From IMG/VR virus record IMGVR_UViG_3300018080_008431, positions 1 to 37,014 of that record: a stretch of DNA of 37,014 nucleotides. One strand, given 5' to 3'. The notes beneath the pieces are model-generated. The model worked only from the letters and a program-made list of their open reading frames with translations. It was not told the DNA's origin and ran no database searches. Position numbers and translations under genes: made by a program. The stretch comes from a virus. Positions 21,361-37,014 of this stretch are shown one piece after another. The number at the start of each line of letters is the position of its first letter. Position 1 is the first letter of the stretch.

Positions 21361-21587
21361 TACTCAACCTCCAACGACTTTCTTACTTCGGACTCTATTG
21401 CTTTGGCTAACTTATTTGGTGCATAATCTCCTGATAATCTTACTATCTGTTTATTAGGATAGGGATGAGTAAATTCATAAGCTGTTAACGATACCTCTTT
21501 GATTATCTTTTCTATCTGTTCTACACTTAACAACCTCTTGGCGATTTCGGATTTGTAAAACTCTTTTAACAAATCTTCGCTTTCCAT
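21360..21587 (-). CDS. Hypothetical protein, 75 aa
   Basis: This is a 75-residue charged, helical protein with a central YEFTHPYPNKQIVRLSGDY. It shares its start base with the stop of the radical SAM gene and so is coupled to it. No family is recognised. It might be a partner of the radical SAM enzyme or simply a co-transcribed early gene. Confidence 0.5.
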   Translation of the reverse strand: MESEDLLKEFYKSEIAKRLLSVEQIEKIIKEVSLTAYEFTHPYPNKQIVRLSGDYAPNKLAKAIESEVRKSLEVE

Positions 21588-23539
21588 TACTCAACCTCCT
21601 GTACTACTCCCGTTAAATTCTCTTTACCGAAATAATCCTTTCTATTTCCACAAACACCTTTCTTTGCTACATCAGGCATATTCTTTATTATACCGCATTG
21701 ATGGCAATCGTGATTACATCCTGAAGTTTCCTCTGCCTTCCTTGCCTTCTCATATTCAGACCAGAAGTACTCTTTATCTGTTCCGATATCAATTATATCC
21801 CAAGGAAGTGGGTCATCATATTTTAATTCTCTTAGCGTATCATCAATATTATACCCGTGCTTCAACTGCATATAAGTCTTAACGCCAGTCCACAGCTTAG
21901 AATTTGACTCACCCCAATCCTGCTGTGAATATATGTTATATTTAATAATAGTCTTTATCATAGGAACGCAGAACCTACGGTCTGACCTATCGAGTAATGC
22001 TTCCAACTTACGGCCTGCCGGTGAACCTTTAACATTTCGCCATCCTTTTACCACATCCTTTTTCAGCTTCTCATCCCAAACTACATAAGAGCCATCATTG
22101 AATTTATCGTTATATATCCTCACAAAATCAGCCATCCAAGGACTCTCTTTATACTCGCACCATTGAAAGGGAGTATGAGGTTTTGGAATAAACGGATTAA
22201 CGGATAACTCAATAGAGGACATAGGCCTTATTTCTCGGCTTACCTTCCACATTTCATCCATTAGATTATGCAGGTCTATTACATCTTGCTGAGTCTCAAA
22301 CGGCAACCCAACCATACACATTACTTTCGTTCTGATAATGCCCTCTCGAATAGCCATTTTAAAAGCATCCCAGAACACCTTACTACCTAAATGCTTATTA
22401 ACTACCCTCCTCATCCGAGGATTAGCTGCTTCAAGAGCAAAACAAACTGAACGCTTACGCCTATGCTCATTCCAAGTCCTCTCGAATTGGTCTATCCGCT
22501 CTGAATACCCGTCATACTGAATACCCAAGCTGATAGCATAATCTCTGGCCTCATTGTATCTTGAATAGTCGGTAGGTGTCAGGCCCATCATCCTTACTGT
22601 ACCCATATCTTGACGAGATTTAATAGCATCTAACACGCCTTGAAAGTTTCGTTCTCTATATGGTTTATACCAATTAAAAGGCGCACAGAAGCGACAACCG
22701 TGAACACATCCCCTTGTTACCTCGACATCCTTTGTCAAATATAATCTGTTTCGGGCAACATTTTTATTATAATCGGTAATAGTATAATTATATTTAGGGT
22801 CAGAGATATCAACCTTCTGAAACTGAACCCTATCTGGCGCACCTTCCCAAAGTTTTTTCATCCCTGCATAGCGTTTAGTCTCGGGGTCAAAAATATTTTC
22901 ATAGAATCGGGGTACATAGCAGCCGGGGATTTGTGCTATCGCCTTGAGGATTTCTAATTTCTTCTTGCCCTCTTTCCTCATATCCCGAATTGTCCTGACG
23001 ATAGCGGGCGCACCATCCTCACCTTCACCGATAAACATTACATCAAAAATTGGTGCAAGTCCTTCTGGTGCAGTATTTAACACTCCTCCTGCGACAAGGA
23101 TAGGCCATCTTTCATCCTCTCTTTGTTCTGCGAGGAAGGGAATTTTAGCATACTTGAGTATCTGAACAGCATTACAGACATTGGGAGTAAAGAACATACT
23201 CAATCCGAGGACATCAAATTCTCGGAGCGGTATCTTTGTTCCATATCCGAATAACGGTATGTTATTACTTGTTAATGCTTTTCTTACGGCAGGTTCGGGT
23301 AAGTAGCAATAGTCAACGCAGATATCTTCGATATGAGTTAAGACATTATGGATAATATGAACACCCATCATGCCTGCTCCCGTAAAGTAGGGAACGCAAT
23401 GTACCAGAGCTACCTTAAAATCAGAGTCCTTACAGGGAGTATCAACATCGAACATCCCTTTAATAGCATCGTCAGTTCTATCACCTTGTAGTTTATGACC
23501 TTTAATTACATTTTTAAAAGCTCTTGCATCTATTCTCAA
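21587..23539 (-). CDS. B12-binding radical SAM enzyme, TIGR03960-like
   Basis: This 650-residue enzyme starts at a TTG with AGGGG five bases upstream. Residues 42-180 form a cobalamin-binding-like domain (KVALVHCVPYFTG, VLGLSMFFTPN, VAGGVLNTAPE, FIGEGE) without the DxHxxG motif. The radical SAM core (about 265-460) has C278, C282 and C285 in VTRGCVHGCRFC for a 4Fe-4S cluster. The C-terminus PLPWDIIDIGTDKEYF then C608, C612, C615 (CNHDCHQCGI) matches the end of the TIGR03960 family of unknown bacterial radical SAM proteins. The reaction is unknown. RNA, protein or nucleobase modification are all possible. Confidence 0.8.
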   Translation of the reverse strand: MRIDARAFKNVIKGHKLQGDRTDDAIKGMFDVDTPCKDSDFKVALVHCVPYFTGAGMMGVHIIHNVLTHIEDICVDYCYLPEPAVRKALTSNNIPLFGYGTKIPLREFDVLGLSMFFTPNVCNAVQILKYAKIPFLAEQREDERWPILVAGGVLNTAPEGLAPIFDVMFIGEGEDGAPAIVRTIRDMRKEGKKKLEILKAIAQIPGCYVPRFYENIFDPETKRYAGMKKLWEGAPDRVQFQKVDISDPKYNYTITDYNKNVARNRLYLTKDVEVTRGCVHGCRFCAPFNWYKPYRERNFQGVLDAIKSRQDMGTVRMMGLTPTDYSRYNEARDYAISLGIQYDGYSERIDQFERTWNEHRRKRSVCFALEAANPRMRRVVNKHLGSKVFWDAFKMAIREGIIRTKVMCMVGLPFETQQDVIDLHNLMDEMWKVSREIRPMSSIELSVNPFIPKPHTPFQWCEYKESPWMADFVRIYNDKFNDGSYVVWDEKLKKDVVKGWRNVKGSPAGRKLEALLDRSDRRFCVPMIKTIIKYNIYSQQDWGESNSKLWTGVKTYMQLKHGYNIDDTLRELKYDDPLPWDIIDIGTDKEYFWSEYEKARKAEETSGCNHDCHQCGIIKNMPDVAKKGVCGNRKDYFGKENLTGVVQEVE

Positions 23540-25641: not shown

Positions 25642-26106
25642 TTATAAATCAACCAAAAACTGTACATATTCTTCTTGATTAAAAATACCCACCTTAATCA
25701 CCTCTATCTGATTAACATCCATCCTACCTTTAGGCCATACATTAGGAGGAATAATTTTACCAATTCCAAATAATGCCTTAGAATAATCAACCTCATCAAT
25801 AGCATTATCACTTATAATAATAAGATAAGCAGGTATTCTTAACTCAAATGATAATCTGGCATATAATTCTAATTGAAATCCATTATTCAAACTAATAAAA
25901 TGTGTTACCACATCCTTAATTGTTTTAAGACTACCTATTACCCGCCGACACTCTAATAATGCTACTGGTTTACCTTTACGCCACTCTATCCAATCTAAAT
26001 CTGAACAGTAGCAATCTCGTCTTTGAGATATCTTCGGAAAACACTCCCTTCGCCATAAAGAATACTTCTGGTCGTGACCGTGTCCTTTATCAGTATGTAC
26101 CATCAT
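25642..26106 (-). CDS. PD-(D/E)XK-like nuclease candidate
   Basis: This 154-residue protein has CSDLDWIEWRKGKPVALLEC (35-53) followed by R54. D36 or D38 followed by E52-x-R54 after a strand fits the D...ExK arrangement of PD-(D/E)XK nucleases, with Arg for Lys. QLELYARLSFELRIPAYLIII (78-98) fits the usual following helix and strand. It starts with an ATGA overlap at the end of the Rad50 C-half gene (26103-26106), suggesting work with that complex. No helicase is fused. The assignment rests on motif reading only. Confidence 0.5.
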   Translation of the reverse strand: MMVHTDKGHGHDQKYSLWRRECFPKISQRRDCYCSDLDWIEWRKGKPVALLECRRVIGSLKTIKDVVTHFISLNNGFQLELYARLSFELRIPAYLIIISDNAIDEVDYSKALFGIGKIIPPNVWPKGRMDVNQIEVIKVGIFNQEEYVQFLVDL

Positions 26107-26723
26107 TTTATCTCAATGCTATTATCAGAAAACCTCATCAATTCGTTCTTATGACTTACCATTATAATCTGCCTACCTATCCTATCAGCCAGAGCATTTA
26201 AAAATGTACCGGCTGCAGGTAAATATTGTCTGGATAAATGCTTAAAACTTTCATCAAGTATCAACGGCCCTTCCACTCTCGGCCTACTTATATTTAATAT
26301 AGCTGTCCTAAGAGCCAGAGATACAATATCTACTACACCGCCACCCGAGGTATCCATTGGATTATGCGGTTCGTTATATGCTTTGGATTTTATCTTAAAA
26401 TTGACCTCTTGAAGATTTCCTCTCCTTCCGAAGTCTAACTCAAAACTATAATCTGGTCCTAATATACTTTGTAAGGCATAAGTTACTATTGCTTCAAACC
26501 CGTGCTGAGTCTTAATCCTTACTGAACTCTGGGCTATTGTCAAAACCTCCACACATTTAGAGTAAAGCTCCTTATTCTTACTGTGCTGTTCGAGTTTATC
26601 TTCACTGTCCTCTACCTGTTTAACCAATAGTTTTATCTGTCCATTAAGAGAGTCTTTCCGTGACTGTAAATCGTTAATAGATTTTTCTACTGTACCTAAC
26701 CTTGCTTCAAAATACTCTCGCAT
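26103..26723 (-). CDS. Rad50/SbcC-like ATPase, C-terminal half
   Basis: This 206-residue protein starts with about 60 residues of coiled coil. It then has the ABC signature TSGGGVVDIVSLALR (125-139), Walker B GPLILDESF (152-160) and the switch His in IIMVSHKNE (H191). No Walker A is present, so it needs the separate N-half at 29357-30478 to form one ATPase head. GAGGAG eight bases before the ATG supports independent translation. The N-terminus (FEARLGTVEKSI) resembles that of the 78-aa coil gene just upstream. The expected role is end-processing of DNA with the Mre11-like nuclease. Confidence 0.8.
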   Translation of the reverse strand: MREYFEARLGTVEKSINDLQSRKDSLNGQIKLLVKQVEDSEDKLEQHSKNKELYSKCVEVLTIAQSSVRIKTQHGFEAIVTYALQSILGPDYSFELDFGRRGNLQEVNFKIKSKAYNEPHNPMDTSGGGVVDIVSLALRTAILNISRPRVEGPLILDESFKHLSRQYLPAAGTFLNALADRIGRQIIMVSHKNELMRFSDNSIEIK

Positions 26724-26932
26724 TTCTTTAGCTCCTCGTTAATAGCCTTTTCCTCATTAGCCAACCACTCATCAATCTTGTCAATATCAATGTTATGCTC
26801 TGCTAATTCTTTCTGTGCCTTTTCCCTCTCTGAATGTAAATTACTCAACCTCTCCTCGAGTTTAGCTTTATCAATCTTCTGCTGACCTACTGTCTTTTCA
26901 ATAGTCTCAAGTCTTTCTTTAAAATCACTCAT
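26696..26932 (-). CDS. Coiled-coil protein, 78 aa, next to the Rad50 C-half
   Basis: This 78-residue protein is nearly all coiled coil (MSDFKERLETIEKTV, then KLEERLSNLHSEREKAQ). AGGAGG lies four bases upstream. It overlaps the Rad50 C-half by 28 bases in another frame. Its beginning matches that of the C-half, so one may derive from the other. It may form part of the coil arm, making the ATPase a three-gene assembly. Confidence 0.65.
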   Translation of the reverse strand: MSDFKERLETIEKTVGQQKIDKAKLEERLSNLHSEREKAQKELAEHNIDIDKIDEWLANEEKAINEELKKCESILKQG

Positions 26933-27873
26933 GCTACCTCCTGACTTTCAAACCTCTGTATTCTTTCCACTATATTATCAACCACTTCCTTATCTATACC
27001 CGCCTGAGTTCCTGCGAGAGATTTAATTATATTAGCTAAATTAAAACCCTGAACCTTCGCTGACTCTAAACTCTGAACAAATGATTCTATCGATGCTTCA
27101 AGACTTTTATTTTCCTTGACCTTCGCTAAGTCAAATACTTCTTCTGGTTGTTTATAGGGTACTGGAATAATCTTCATCGAGGTAGGATTTGTATTTATAA
27201 ATACCATACTTATCGGTCTTTCAATATCTGATTTGGCTACCGTCATACGAGAAAACCCACCAATATTAACATAAGTCGTATCTTCTATCTTCGCTATCCC
27301 GAAAGGTGAGTGGTTATGAGCTACCAACACCAAATTATAATCACTTTTTATATCTTCAATATTTAAATGAGGTATCTTTGGATTTATCGGCCCGTGAGTT
27401 AAGAAAGCGTGAACTACCGCTATTGCCTTAACACAATTTCCCGAGAATAAGCCCTTTTCTCTTATTTCTTCCTCTATCCTGTGATGGTAATCATATCCTT
27501 GAATATACAATTTTTCATCTGGGTAATAATGCTTATCTAAATGCTGTATCAATCCAGACCGCCTGAATATATGGTCTAAGATAGATGCTCCCGATAGATT
27601 TGGATTATGACCTATCTCATCGTGGTTACCTCTAACTACCTTCCAAGGAATACCCGCCTCCTCTATCATATCTACTATCCTGTCGCATAAATTTAAGCTG
27701 ACTAATGGCGAATCGAAAAAATCCCCTCCGTGAATTACCATATCAACAGTGTTATCCTTACTATACTTAATCACAAATTGTAATTTCTCAATAACATCCT
27801 CAAGATATGAACCCGTCCGAAAGGCAGGATTCACTCCCTTAATATGAGTATCATTGAGATACAGTAATTTCAT
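26929..27873 (-). CDS. sbcD: Mre11/SbcD-like nuclease
   Basis: This 314-residue calcineurin-like metallophosphoesterase shows all usual metal ligands: D8 and H10 (LNDTH), D51 (HGGDFFD), N83-H84-D85 (RGNHDE), H155 (VVHAFLTHG) and H186-N187-H188 (VAHNHSP). The C-terminal 90 residues are the capping or partner-binding part. With the split Rad50 halves it should form an SbcCD/Mre11-Rad50 type complex that trims DNA ends for recombination and replication, as T4 gp47 does with gp46. It overlaps the glycosylase gene and abuts the coil gene. Confidence 0.85.
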   Translation of the reverse strand: MKLLYLNDTHIKGVNPAFRTGSYLEDVIEKLQFVIKYSKDNTVDMVIHGGDFFDSPLVSLNLCDRIVDMIEEAGIPWKVVRGNHDEIGHNPNLSGASILDHIFRRSGLIQHLDKHYYPDEKLYIQGYDYHHRIEEEIREKGLFSGNCVKAIAVVHAFLTHGPINPKIPHLNIEDIKSDYNLVLVAHNHSPFGIAKIEDTTYVNIGGFSRMTVAKSDIERPISMVFINTNPTSMKIIPVPYKQPEEVFDLAKVKENKSLEASIESFVQSLESAKVQGFNLANIIKSLAGTQAGIDKEVVDNIVERIQRFESQEVA

Positions 27874-28444
27874 TATAAAGCTCCCTTACTGGCTCTACTA
27901 CATTATTATATTTCTCTTTCAACTCTGGCCTATAAGTCAATACTGCTGATGGATGAGGAAGTATTACGGCCTTACAATTCTTTTCTGGTATATCTTTAAT
28001 CTTCCCCGTCTGCTCTAAAAACGGAGTTAATCTCTCACCAAACACACCCCAGTAAGCGTCAGCTCCTAAAACAACTATCATTTTCGGCTCAAGATATTTC
28101 AACTCAAGATGAAGCCACACTCGGGAACAGACCAGTAACTCAGCCATCTCTGGAGGCCTGTTACTGGCTGTATGGCATTTCAGCACATTTGTTATATAAC
28201 ACTCCCGTCTTGGTATATCACACTCCATCAACCAAGTATTTAAAAATCTTCCCGACCTCCCGACAAACGGAATACCTACCTCATCCTCATCCCTGCCAGG
28301 ATTACGGCCTACAATTACTACTCCGTTTTTCCTTTTAGGCCCTATCGGGAAAACTGGTTGAGTTGATTCAAGGGTAGCTTTACACCCTTTACAAAACTCT
28401 AATTCATCCAGAAATCTCATCTTTTCTATCATCTGTGTAATCAT
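27851..28444 (-). CDS. Uracil-DNA glycosylase, family 4-like
   Basis: I take the ATG at 28444, preceded by AAAGGA, rather than the TTG six bases earlier. The 197-residue protein has Cys pairs for an iron-sulfur cluster (near 18 and 21, then near 90 and 106), motif 1 GRNPGRDEDEVGIPFVGRSG and the closing motif ILPHPSAV. Motif 1 has GRNPG where typical family 4 enzymes have GExPG, so the usual catalytic acidic residue may be replaced. The enzyme should remove uracil from DNA. Its place beside Mre11 fits repair. Confidence 0.75.
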   Translation of the reverse strand: MITQMIEKMRFLDELEFCKGCKATLESTQPVFPIGPKRKNGVVIVGRNPGRDEDEVGIPFVGRSGRFLNTWLMECDIPRRECYITNVLKCHTASNRPPEMAELLVCSRVWLHLELKYLEPKMIVVLGADAYWGVFGERLTPFLEQTGKIKDIPEKNCKAVILPHPSAVLTYRPELKEKYNNVVEPVRELYNEITVSQ

Positions 28445-28955
28445 CCTCAATCCTTTCTGTTGCTATCTTTTTATGTTTTTCCTCAAAATAATCTTTTCGC
28501 TTATAAGTCAACTGCTCATACCTCTTACACCACCCTTTATCATAATCAGGACAACCCCGATATATTTTTTTCTTCTCTTTGGTTCTTCCTAATAATTTCT
28601 GTGATTTTAGGGGTACTCTTATCCACTTAACTCTTATTAACCTTAAAGGTTCACATTTTTGATTATCACAAGGACACCCTACATATACATTTAACTTCTT
28701 TCTTATCCCTATTTCAATTCTATCAAGCTCTTTCTCAATTTTAGATAACCTATCGTGTTCCTTCTCATCACCATCACGATAAGCCTGTAATAATTTTTTA
28801 AAGTTAGCGTTGTAGGCCGCACTATTATTAACCAACTCAATAACAGACGACATATCATAATCTTTACCTCTTAATAATTCTATTACCCTATCAACCGTTA
28901 GACCTCTATTGACCTTAACTTCATCTTTAATTAAATTAGAGTTAATTATCTCCAT
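28404..28955 (-). CDS. Hypothetical Cys-containing protein, 183 aa
   Basis: I use ATG 28955 instead of one at 29099, because the longer form would overlap the whole Cys-rich 61-aa gene. The product starts MEIINSNLIKDEVKV, is helical and charged (YRDGDEKEHDRLSKIEKELD), then has GCPCDNQKCEP and RGCPDYDKGWCKRYEQL, two Cys clusters that could hold a zinc. The end is highly charged. No family is recognised. The longer start cannot be excluded. Confidence 0.5.
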   Translation of the reverse strand: MEIINSNLIKDEVKVNRGLTVDRVIELLRGKDYDMSSVIELVNNSAAYNANFKKLLQAYRDGDEKEHDRLSKIEKELDRIEIGIRKKLNVYVGCPCDNQKCEPLRLIRVKWIRVPLKSQKLLGRTKEKKKIYRGCPDYDKGWCKRYEQLTYKRKDYFEEKHKKIATERIEDDYTDDRKDEISG

Positions 28956-29127
28956 TTTCTTCAAGGCATTTTGCGAGTCTATAAATTCTACCTCTGCTAT
29001 CCCTCTGAAGATATTTCTTATAGAGATTACATCTGTACTTCTTACCTGATGAATTTCCTTCATCAACAAACATACAAGGACATTTATTACATAATTCATC
29101 TATCCCCAAATCAATTTCTAATCTCAT
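28942..29127 (-). CDS. Small Cys-rich protein, 61 aa
   Basis: This 61-residue protein has LCNKCPCMF, then YRCNLYKKYL, then LAKCLEENG. It shares the layout Cx2-3C, C-N/K-x-x-K-K, final KC with the tandem pair at 19161-19543, so it is probably a distant third copy. ATGA overlap (29124-29127) with the upstream gene and a GGGAAGG site support it. Confidence 0.55.
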   Translation of the reverse strand: MRLEIDLGIDELCNKCPCMFVDEGNSSGKKYRCNLYKKYLQRDSRGRIYRLAKCLEENGDN

Positions 29128-29357
29128 CCTTCCCTCTCAAGTCTAATGTCTTTAAATTTTAAAGAGTCTAATACTAAATACTTAGTAGCATCCTCATAAG
29201 GTTTAACGCTACGCTTGGCTACATAATTTATAAATGCCGCACAGGTCATAGCTAAAATTTGGAAAGGCATTTTAACATCGTGCTTAAGCCCAATATCACC
29301 CTTACCGTCTTGAGTAATTTTAATTCTAAATGTTACCGTATATTCTTCAGTTACCAT
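29124..29357 (-). CDS. Hypothetical protein, 77 aa
   Basis: This 77-residue protein has an N-terminal beta part (EEYTVTFRIKITQDGKGDI) and a helix (FQILAMTCAAFINYVAKRSV). No known motif is present. It shares its start base with the stop of the Rad50 N-half gene and its end with the Cys-rich 61-aa gene, so it is co-translated with the repair set. Confidence 0.5.
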   Translation of the reverse strand: MVTEEYTVTFRIKITQDGKGDIGLKHDVKMPFQILAMTCAAFINYVAKRSVKPYEDATKYLVLDSLKFKDIRLEREG

Positions 29358-30478
29358 TATAATTCTATCTCCTTTAAGATTTCATCCGTGATTTTACTGT
29401 GACAAGTCGGACACCGCTGATACTCCTTGAGTATGCTTTTATATTCCTCTGTATTCTTCTGTACTTCCCCTGTAATGCGTTTAATATCCTTCTCTATATC
29501 TACATATACCTTATTGATTTCTTTTACCTTACCGACCAACTGTGCTGCATTTCCGTACCTTTCAATAGATTTCTTGACCGATAATAAGTTATCAGGCCAT
29601 TTTATACTATCTAACTTCTTATGAATAGCCCTTATTTCTTTATCAAATGACTTAATCTGCTCTGCTAACCCCTTAACTATACTGAATACCTCTATCCTGC
29701 CTTTAAGGCCTACAAGTGTTAATTTATCTGGTATCTTAATCTTAGCAATGTCATCCTCTAACTGCCTACTATCCTTCTCATAAGCAACCATCCAATCTCT
29801 TAATTCTGCTATATCAAAATAAGTAGAGTTTCTGGCCTTAGCTTTAGCGTAGGCCTCTTTTGCATCACCAAGCTTACCTTTAATCTGGTCTAACTCTGCC
29901 GTAATATCATCAAGCGTTCCCATCTTCTCGCTGACATCAGCCAATAACATTTTACTTTCTCGGCTTATAGCAAGAATATCTTTATTATAAGACTGCGAGA
30001 CAGCATCGAGAATATCATTACCCGTGAGCTTGTTAAATACTTTCATCCTAAAGGTAGCCGGGGAATCGAGCAGGAAAGGAAGGGAAATTTGAGGCGAAAT
30101 ATTTAAAATCAACTGCTCTTTATCAACTGCCATAGGAACGATGCCTAACTCCTTAACAATATCCTCGGGTACTGTCTTGCCGATAGCATCATATCTTTTT
30201 TCCTCACTATCCTTTATTAAAATATAAGCATTAACCGTATCACTTTTCTCTCTTTCAATAATTGTTCCATTATCCAAAAGAATACGAACTCGAGTAATAT
30301 CCGTATTATGCTTACGGATATCATCACCCCGATTATACATTATCCACTTAAAAGCCCTAACAATAGCAGACTTGCCTGCATCTGTTTCACCCAAAAGTAC
30401 ATTAACCTTTGAAGTAAAGTTTGCCTTAAACTTTTCGTGTTTTTGAAAATTAACTAATTCTATTCCTTTAATCCACAT
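29357..30478 (-). CDS. Rad50/SbcC-like ATPase, N-terminal half with zinc hook
   Basis: I take ATG 30478 (AAGGA upstream, MWIKGIELVNFQKHEKF, the true domain start) rather than ATG 30544. The 373-residue product has Walker A GETDAGKS (30-37), the ATPase N-lobe to about 170, a long coiled coil, and then ends 15 residues after C356-P-T-C359, the zinc-hook motif at the arm tip of Rad50. The C-lobe with signature and Walker B is missing here and found at 26103-26723. The break at the hook is too neat for a random mutation. Confidence 0.8.
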   Translation of the reverse strand: MWIKGIELVNFQKHEKFKANFTSKVNVLLGETDAGKSAIVRAFKWIMYNRGDDIRKHNTDITRVRILLDNGTIIEREKSDTVNAYILIKDSEEKRYDAIGKTVPEDIVKELGIVPMAVDKEQLILNISPQISLPFLLDSPATFRMKVFNKLTGNDILDAVSQSYNKDILAISRESKMLLADVSEKMGTLDDITAELDQIKGKLGDAKEAYAKAKARNSTYFDIAELRDWMVAYEKDSRQLEDDIAKIKIPDKLTLVGLKGRIEVFSIVKGLAEQIKSFDKEIRAIHKKLDSIKWPDNLLSVKKSIERYGNAAQLVGKVKEINKVYVDIEKDIKRITGEVQKNTEEYKSILKEYQRCPTCHSKITDEILKEIEL

Positions 30479-36177: not shown

Positions 36178-37014
36178 CTACATTTTTTCAGATTTAATGT
36201 TTTTCAAGATTTCAAAAATTTCATTTTCTAAAAGTGGAACATTAAATCCTAATGCCTCAATTTTTTCAGTTGACAAAATACAATTAGAACGACCTGCCTT
36301 TAAACCTGCCAAAACTTCTTCAGCTGGAGCTGTAATATACTCTACTGGCTCGATTAACTGGTACATCCGTAAAATTTCCTCAACATCCATAGCTCCTTTA
36401 TTCACTACATTAAAAGTACCAGTACATCCTTTCTCGGCTAAAAATTTAATAGCTTCACAAAGTAGTTTAAGAGTCGTCATTGAATTTTTCTTAACAAGAA
36501 GATGTTTGCCCTCTTTAGCATACTTAACCACCTTAAATATGTAACACCTATCACTTAACTTTTCATCAATAGGCATCCTGATACGAAGTACCAGAGCTTC
36601 AGCATATTCTTCAAGAATCTCTTGCGACCAACATTTAGTCTTTGAGTAAAAGCTTCCTGTAAAGTTAGCTATATCTTCTTCCGACCAATGTTTCTCGTAA
36701 CCTGAATAGATGCATCCCGAGCCGATATGAATCCAGTACCTCTTTAGCTTCTGACATACCTCTGCTATCATTACTGGTAGGCCGACATTACCGCCGAAGG
36801 TTTCTGCCTTATGGTCCTCGCACCAATCCACATTAGGCCTTCCCGTCTTTCCTGCACAGTTGATTAAAATATGACTTGGGTATTGCTCCTTTAATAAATA
36901 TTCCAAGTCGTTCTCGCTGTAAATATGCCCTATTAACATTTTACAGTTAGGTAAATTCCTATGTAAATACTGGCCTACATAGCCCGCTCCAAGTACCAAA
37001 AAATTTAGAGCCAT
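36178..37014 (-). CDS. RmlD-like NAD(P)-dependent sugar nucleotide reductase/epimerase
   Basis: This 278-residue short-chain dehydrogenase-type enzyme has the Rossmann motif NFLVLGAGYVGQYLHRNL (4-21), ILINCAGKTGRPNVDWCEDH near 50-70, WIHIGSGCIYSG around the catalytic Ser/Thr, and FYSKTKCWSQEIL, which holds the Y-x-x-x-K pair. The family reduces or epimerises dTDP- or similar sugars (RmlD, dTDP-rhamnose synthesis). It could make the donor for the glycosyltransferases in this phage. The ATG is at the window edge, so a longer N-terminus cannot be excluded. Confidence 0.75.
   Translation of the reverse strand: MALNFLVLGAGYVGQYLHRNLPNCKMLIGHIYSENDLEYLLKEQYPSHILINCAGKTGRPNVDWCEDHKAETFGGNVGLPVMIAEVCQKLKRYWIHIGSGCIYSGYEKHWSEEDIANFTGSFYSKTKCWSQEILEEYAEALVLRIRMPIDEKLSDRCYIFKVVKYAKEGKHLLVKKNSMTTLKLLCEAIKFLAEKGCTGTFNVVNKGAMDVEEILRMYQLIEPVEYITAPAEEVLAGLKAGRSNCILSTEKIEALGFNVPLLENEIFEILKNIKSEKM

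What the first reader, a model, noticed from the sequence alone, without database searches (positions are those of the whole stretch)
26103..30478. Rad50/SbcC split at the zinc hook into separate genes
The N-half ends just after CPTC, and the C-half with signature and Walker B is a separate gene about 2.6 kb downstream, preceded by a 78-aa coil protein with a similar start. Mre11, a glycosylase and a PD-(D/E)XK-like protein lie between or beside them. The ATPase head must assemble in trans, an architecture unlike the single-chain T4 gp46 or bacterial SbcC.
Basis: partly seen in the sequence, partly recalled or inferred. Interest (0 to 1): 0.7.

Follow-up and report, generated by a model that had tools for sequence, protein, structure and literature searches.

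The report
Phage Rad50 split at zinc hook
A diverse group of phages and phage-like plasmids makes the DNA-repair ATPase Rad50 as two separate proteins cut at the zinc hook, accompanied by a small helical-hairpin protein and the Mre11 nuclease, whereas every full-length Rad50 compared here is one continuous chain.

Summary
Confirmed and much broader than first seen. The window encodes an N-half (29357-30478, minus; P-loop, arm, CPTC hook 14 residues from its end) and a C-half (26103-26723; signature, Walker B, H-loop) of a Rad50/SbcC ATPase as separate genes. Mre11 and a 78-aa coil protein lie between them. This is not an error: about 75 non-redundant loci (IMG/VR, cultured phages, Bacillota chromosomes, megaplasmids) have the same split. 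No ORF carries both halves, and 70 of 73 N-halves end just after a CxxC. Where the halves are not adjacent they lie tens of kilobases apart in the same genome. N-halves and C-halves match, respectively, the N- and C-fragments of solved Rad50/SMC heads. In trees, all 55 split systems fall on one side of a fully supported branch from 13 single-chain Rad50s, which fits one ancient fission. The small coil protein is a conserved fourth component, usually directly upstream of the C-half. Likely mechanism: the halves assemble in trans into a working Mre11-Rad50 nuclease, with the zinc hook carried by the N-half alone. Trans assembly and activity are inferred, not shown. I found no description of it in the open-access papers searched. 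New variant of a known kind.

The parts
29357..30478 (-). Rad50 N-half, 373 aa: head lobe I, arm, terminal CxxC hook
   Evidence: all 54 N-halves scanned hit phrog_16465
30368..30391 (-). Walker A (P-loop) GETDAGKS
   Evidence: G30, G35, K36 invariant in alignment A5
29402..29413 (-). zinc-hook CPTC (residues 356-359), 14 residues from the C-terminus
   Evidence: C356 invariant and C359 at least 90% conserved in A5
26929..27873 (-). Mre11/SbcD phosphoesterase, 314 aa
26696..26932 (-). 78-aa helical-hairpin protein, conserved partner directly upstream of the C-half
26103..26723 (-). Rad50 C-half, 206 aa: long helix 2-88 plus head lobe II
   Evidence: all 78 C-halves scanned hit phrog_15167
26337..26348 (-). 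ABC signature core SGGG
26250..26264 (-). Walker B LILDE (D157 and E158 invariant in 78 C-halves)
27851..28450 (-). uracil-DNA glycosylase family protein lying between the halves (not conserved at this position)
   Evidence: not part of the conserved quartet
25642..26106 (-). 154-aa gene overlapping the C-half stop, possibly PD-(D/E)XK-like (weak)
   Evidence: no Pfam or PHROG hit; motif by eye only

Best explanation
This is a phage Mre11-Rad50 (SbcCD) DNA-end-processing nuclease whose Rad50 is made from two separate polypeptides cut at the zinc hook. The N-half carries lobe I, the P-loop, the arm and the hook cysteines. The C-half carries a long helix and lobe II (signature, Walker B, H-loop). 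Together they rebuild one ABC head, and two heads plus an Mre11 dimer sandwich two ATPs, so each ATP site draws on three chains: Walker A (N-half) and Walker B (C-half) of one protomer, and the signature (C-half) of the other. The hook cysteines sit only on N-halves, so zinc would join two N-halves. The small hairpin protein most likely packs on the arm or on the C-half's long helix as a structural subunit. Shown here: separate genes, complementary folds, motifs, conservation, co-occurrence, absence of a single-chain copy in complete relatives. Inferred: trans assembly, zinc binding, the hairpin's place, and nuclease function in recombination or replication.
For: Motifs and order. Profile matches. 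AF2 C-half pLDDT 94.8 and N-half 87.1; Foldseek puts them on complementary fragments of Rad50/SMC heads. 80+ loci, no ORF with both halves. Gene orders N-Mre11-hairpin-C in 34 loci and N-hairpin-C-Mre11 in 18. CxxC near the end in 64/65 N-halves plus 6/8 remote ones, against a central position in 13/13 single-chain Rad50s. Halves far apart in one genome, e.g. 0.3 vs 94 kb in phage Magritte and 19 vs 127 kb in Tunturi_5. Tree: split systems one side of a branch, 100/100, and for each half alone. N and C distances correlate, Mantel r 0.86, 0/2000 permutations. Mre11 fused to the N-half in L023, pGspE55-1 and pSC2, C-half still separate. An intein sits in the P-loop of one N-half.
Against: No complex could be predicted with the tools (single-chain folding only) and I know of no biochemistry. 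The arm of the N-half (129-346 aa) is longer than its possible partners (about 60 aa of C-half coil plus a roughly 80-aa hairpin), so the usual antiparallel arm cannot run its whole length. The window record is a 37-kb fragment, so a second Rad50 in this particular phage is not excluded. A few N-halves lack CxxC (L036, L092, L096).
Confidence: 0.87

Rival explanations
1. The two genes are decayed or independent remnants: a broken rad50 whose halves no longer work together, or two unrelated ABC-type proteins.
For: Gene fission by mobile elements is known in phages (PMC2988022), and the halves are sometimes far apart in the genome.
Against: Catalytic residues stay invariant down to about 16-25% identity. 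N- and C-halves co-occur across the loci. Correlated divergence, Mantel r 0.86. One group with deep diversification.
Confidence: 0.04
2. The N-half and C-half do not form one head: the C-half works as a standalone dimeric ATPase or regulator and the N-half with Mre11 is a separate machine.
For: C-halves are stably about 205 aa with their own long helix. Mre11 is fused to the N-half in several cases.
Against: The C-half lacks a P-loop and the N-half lacks Walker B and signature. Foldseek places them on complementary chains of the same head.
Confidence: 0.05
3. The pieces are joined into one chain after transcription or translation (split intein, trans-splicing).
For: Inteins occur in the family: L006/L007 carry one in the P-loop.
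Against: N-halves stop 2-28 residues after the CxxC with no intein fragment, and C-halves start with an ordinary Met and helix. The L006 intein is contiguous, not split.
Confidence: 0.02
4. Gene-calling or assembly artefact.
For: None beyond the metagenomic origin of the window.
Against: Same split in isolated phages (vB_BboS-125, Mvi-JY20), complete plasmids and cultured bacterial genomes, with different genes in between.
Confidence: 0.005

Closest known systems
Rad50/SbcC with Mre11/SbcD (including T4 gp46/gp47)
   Same: Head motifs, arm, CxxC hook, Mre11 partner encoded nearby
   Different: T4 gp46 (560 aa, CxxC at 288), E. coli SbcC (1048 aa, CxxC at 506) and 11 other phage Rad50s are single chains with a central CxxC; here two chains, hook at one terminus, plus a hairpin subunit
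P. furiosus Rad50cd crystal constructs (1F2T, 1F2U, 9A9J chains A+B)
   Same: Head deposited as separate N- and C-terminal chains, the same division as the natural halves; that they were co-expressed fragments is from memory
   Different: Laboratory constructs of a single-chain protein, trimmed of coil and hook
Mre11/Rad50 fusion of Bacillus phage 0305phi8-36 (Yoshida et al. 2011, PMC3175470)
   Same: Very probably L023 here: a 218,948-bp record with a 769-aa Mre11 + N-half fusion. The paper noted that one P-loop NTPase segment was missing
   Different: The missing segment is present as a separate C-half gene 1 kb downstream, with the hairpin gene between; identity of record L023 is inferred from size and content
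PHROGs phrog_16465, phrog_15167, phrog_18563
   Same: N-half, C-half and (part of) the hairpin families respectively
   Different: Labelled exonuclease, ATPase and unknown; not linked as parts of one Rad50
Genes-in-pieces phage enzymes (Aeh1 NrdA, phage 25 gp43A/B, T4 topoisomerase; reviewed in PMC2988022)
   Same: One enzyme encoded by split genes that reassemble
   Different: Those splits are associated with mobile elements or untranslated spacers in single phages or small groups; this one is clade-wide, at a structural landmark, with an added subunit

Membership tests
Rad50/SbcC | ABC head lobe I with Walker A | tested here: met
Rad50/SbcC | Lobe II with signature, Walker B, H-loop | tested here: met
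Rad50/SbcC | CxxC zinc hook at the end of the arm | tested here: met
   70 of 73 N-halves; zinc binding itself not testable
Rad50/SbcC | Single chain with both lobes, CxxC central, two antiparallel arm strands of like length | tested here: not met
   13/13 single-chain references do have a central CxxC. Hence filed as a split variant, not a canonical member
Rad50/SbcC | Partner Mre11/SbcD encoded with it | tested here: met
   Mre11 within the locus in most cases
Rad50/SbcC | ATP-dependent nuclease or tethering activity | not testable with these tools
   needs protein
Mre11/SbcD (26929-27873) | Phosphoesterase motifs and similarity to solved Mre11 | tested here: met
   (3qg5_C E 5e-10)

The most novel reading that the evidence does not exclude
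A Rad50 that is obligately a three-piece ATPase: the hairpin protein is an essential subunit that supplies the missing partner of the hook-proximal arm, the N-half arm folds back on itself, and the open chain at the hook and head lets DNA enter or leave by a route closed to single-chain Rad50. Evolution has fused Mre11 to the N-half but never rejoined the two halves in any locus seen, which hints that the break is useful.
Probability: 0.35. Interest if true: 0.8.

Novelty: new variant of a known kind. Interest (0 to 1): 0.66.

Why it matters
Single-chain folding, with the arm doubling back at a hook or hinge, was shared by all 13 Rad50s compared here. A clade-wide natural break at the hook suggests that the two arm strands need not be covalently joined, gives a ready-made way to tag, swap or remove each lobe separately, and names a new conserved candidate subunit. 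It also offers an explanation for an oddity noted in 2011 (a phage Mre11/Rad50 fusion lacking one ATPase half) and re-annotates families now called 'exonuclease', 'ATPase' or 'unknown'.

Tried and rejected
Literature searches for a split Rad50/SbcC found no description, but only open-access PMC papers are held. The idea that the hairpin simply replaces the missing arm strand was tested by length: N-half arm length does not rise with hairpin length (Spearman -0.48), which argues against a simple full-length replacement. Common descent of hairpin and C-half coil: in-register profile match, but the coil controls are too strong to conclude. Second Rad50 in complete phages: none found. A profile of diverse N-halves could not be used for a collection scan.

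Full report
The observation. On the minus strand the window carries, in order, an N-half (29357-30478, 373 aa), two small ORFs, a 231-aa protein, a uracil-DNA glycosylase (27851-28450), Mre11 (26929-27873), a 78-aa coil protein (26696-26932) and a C-half (26103-26723). The N-half has P-loop GETDAGKS and ends CPTC plus 14 residues; the C-half has TSGGG, LILDES and the H-loop histidine. Neither half has the other's motifs.

What the halves are. Profiles of each family find Rad50 first among solved structures, and the third protein finds Mre11. AlphaFold2 gives a confident C-half (pLDDT 94.8: helix 2-88, then lobe II) and a good N-half (pLDDT 87.1: lobe I to about residue 152, helices 154-246, 252-290 and 296-353, then a hook-like end). 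Foldseek places the C-half on 1f2t_B, 1f2u_B and 9a9j_B and the N-half on 1f2u_A, 1f2t_A and 9a9j_A, the two separate chains of Pyrococcus Rad50 head structures, among other SMC-type heads. Those chains are, from my own knowledge, fragments co-expressed in the laboratory. If so, nature's break is one at which a head is known to reassemble.

How widespread. A C-half search returned 80 viral loci (98 stretches confirmed) and five cellular ones (Moorella, Brevibacillus, Ammonifex, Fenollaria and a MAG). Cultured examples are Bacillus phage vB_BboS-125, Microcystis phage Mvi-JY20, Microbacterium phage Magritte and Tunturiibacter phage Tunturi_5. Bacillota plasmids carry it too: pSC2, pGspE55-1, pB6464 and p3 of B. 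velezensis. No ORF in any locus matches both halves. The orders are N-Mre11-hairpin-C (34), N-hairpin-C-Mre11 (18), Mre11-N-hairpin-C (2), one Mre11=N fusion, and partial loci. In Magritte, Tunturi_5 and several large contigs the N-half lies tens of kilobases from the C-half in the same genome. The search was seeded with this family's C-half, so it says that this clade is always split, not how common splitting is in Rad50 overall.

The break point. A CxxC lies within the last 36 residues in 64 of 65 N-halves (some near-duplicates) and in six of eight remote ones, a median of 9 residues before the end. In 13 single-chain Rad50s (T4 gp46, E. coli SbcC, T5-like, Staphylococcus, Listeria, Vibrio and others) it is central. 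A tree of concatenated heads puts the 55 split systems on one side of a 100/100 branch, and each half alone gives the same (98 and 99). Long branches, and a reference set made mostly of phage proteins, call for some caution. Distances in the two halves correlate (Mantel r 0.86).

The fourth component. A helical hairpin of about 77-99 aa lies within 1.5 kb upstream of 65 of 77 C-halves, overlapping or within 20 nt in 41. In six of the other twelve the same profile hits elsewhere in the locus. Part of the profile was built from manually chosen upstream ORFs, so the 65/77 figure is partly circular; the remote hits are not. Its constant length, while the N-half arm varies from 129 to 346 residues, suggests that it is not simply the lost arm strand.

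A literature puzzle. Yoshida et al. 2011 (PMC3175470) reported an Mre11/Rad50 fusion in Bacillus phage 0305phi8-36 lacking one ATPase segment. L023, a 218,948-bp record (the phage genome is given as 218 kb), has such a fusion, ending in CPTC, and the missing half as a separate gene just downstream, with the hairpin gene between. That L023 is this phage is inferred. The same fusion plus separate C-half is in pGspE55-1 and pSC2.

Mechanism. The best reading is a Mre11-Rad50 nuclease assembled in trans, with zinc-hook contacts between N-halves only, probably serving recombination, end processing or degradation in phage DNA metabolism; RusA-like resolvase and DNA polymerase III genes lie nearby. 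Assembly, zinc binding, the hairpin's site and activity are inferences. Single-chain folding was all that the tools allowed.

Noticed in passing
L006:4482-6491 (also L007): The N-half P-loop is interrupted by an intein (Pfam Intein_splicing E 5e-12) with an HNH-like stretch; insertion at the Walker A motif suggests an essential, active N-half.
   Followed up: partly
L023:4672-6981; L112:2121-4526; L113:1962-4487: Mre11 fused to the Rad50 N-half while the C-half stays separate.
   Followed up: yes
L092, L096, L036: N-halves without a terminal CxxC (Magritte-like and one other), possibly hookless variants.
   Followed up: no
window 29410-29800 (N-half arm) and L003, L008: The arm looks built of repeated helical units of about 44 aa separated by xP turns, varying in number; L008 has a nearly exact tandem duplication. 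Which way the hook then points is unclear.
   Followed up: partly
L006:6817-7785: Mre11 motif I reads YCSH instead of the usual DxH, a change of a metal ligand.
   Followed up: no
window 21587-23539: A 650-aa radical SAM protein (Radical_SAM_N2 E 1.6e-37) in a phage genome.
   Followed up: no
window 36178-37014: An RmlD/epimerase-like sugar-nucleotide enzyme at the contig end.
   Followed up: no
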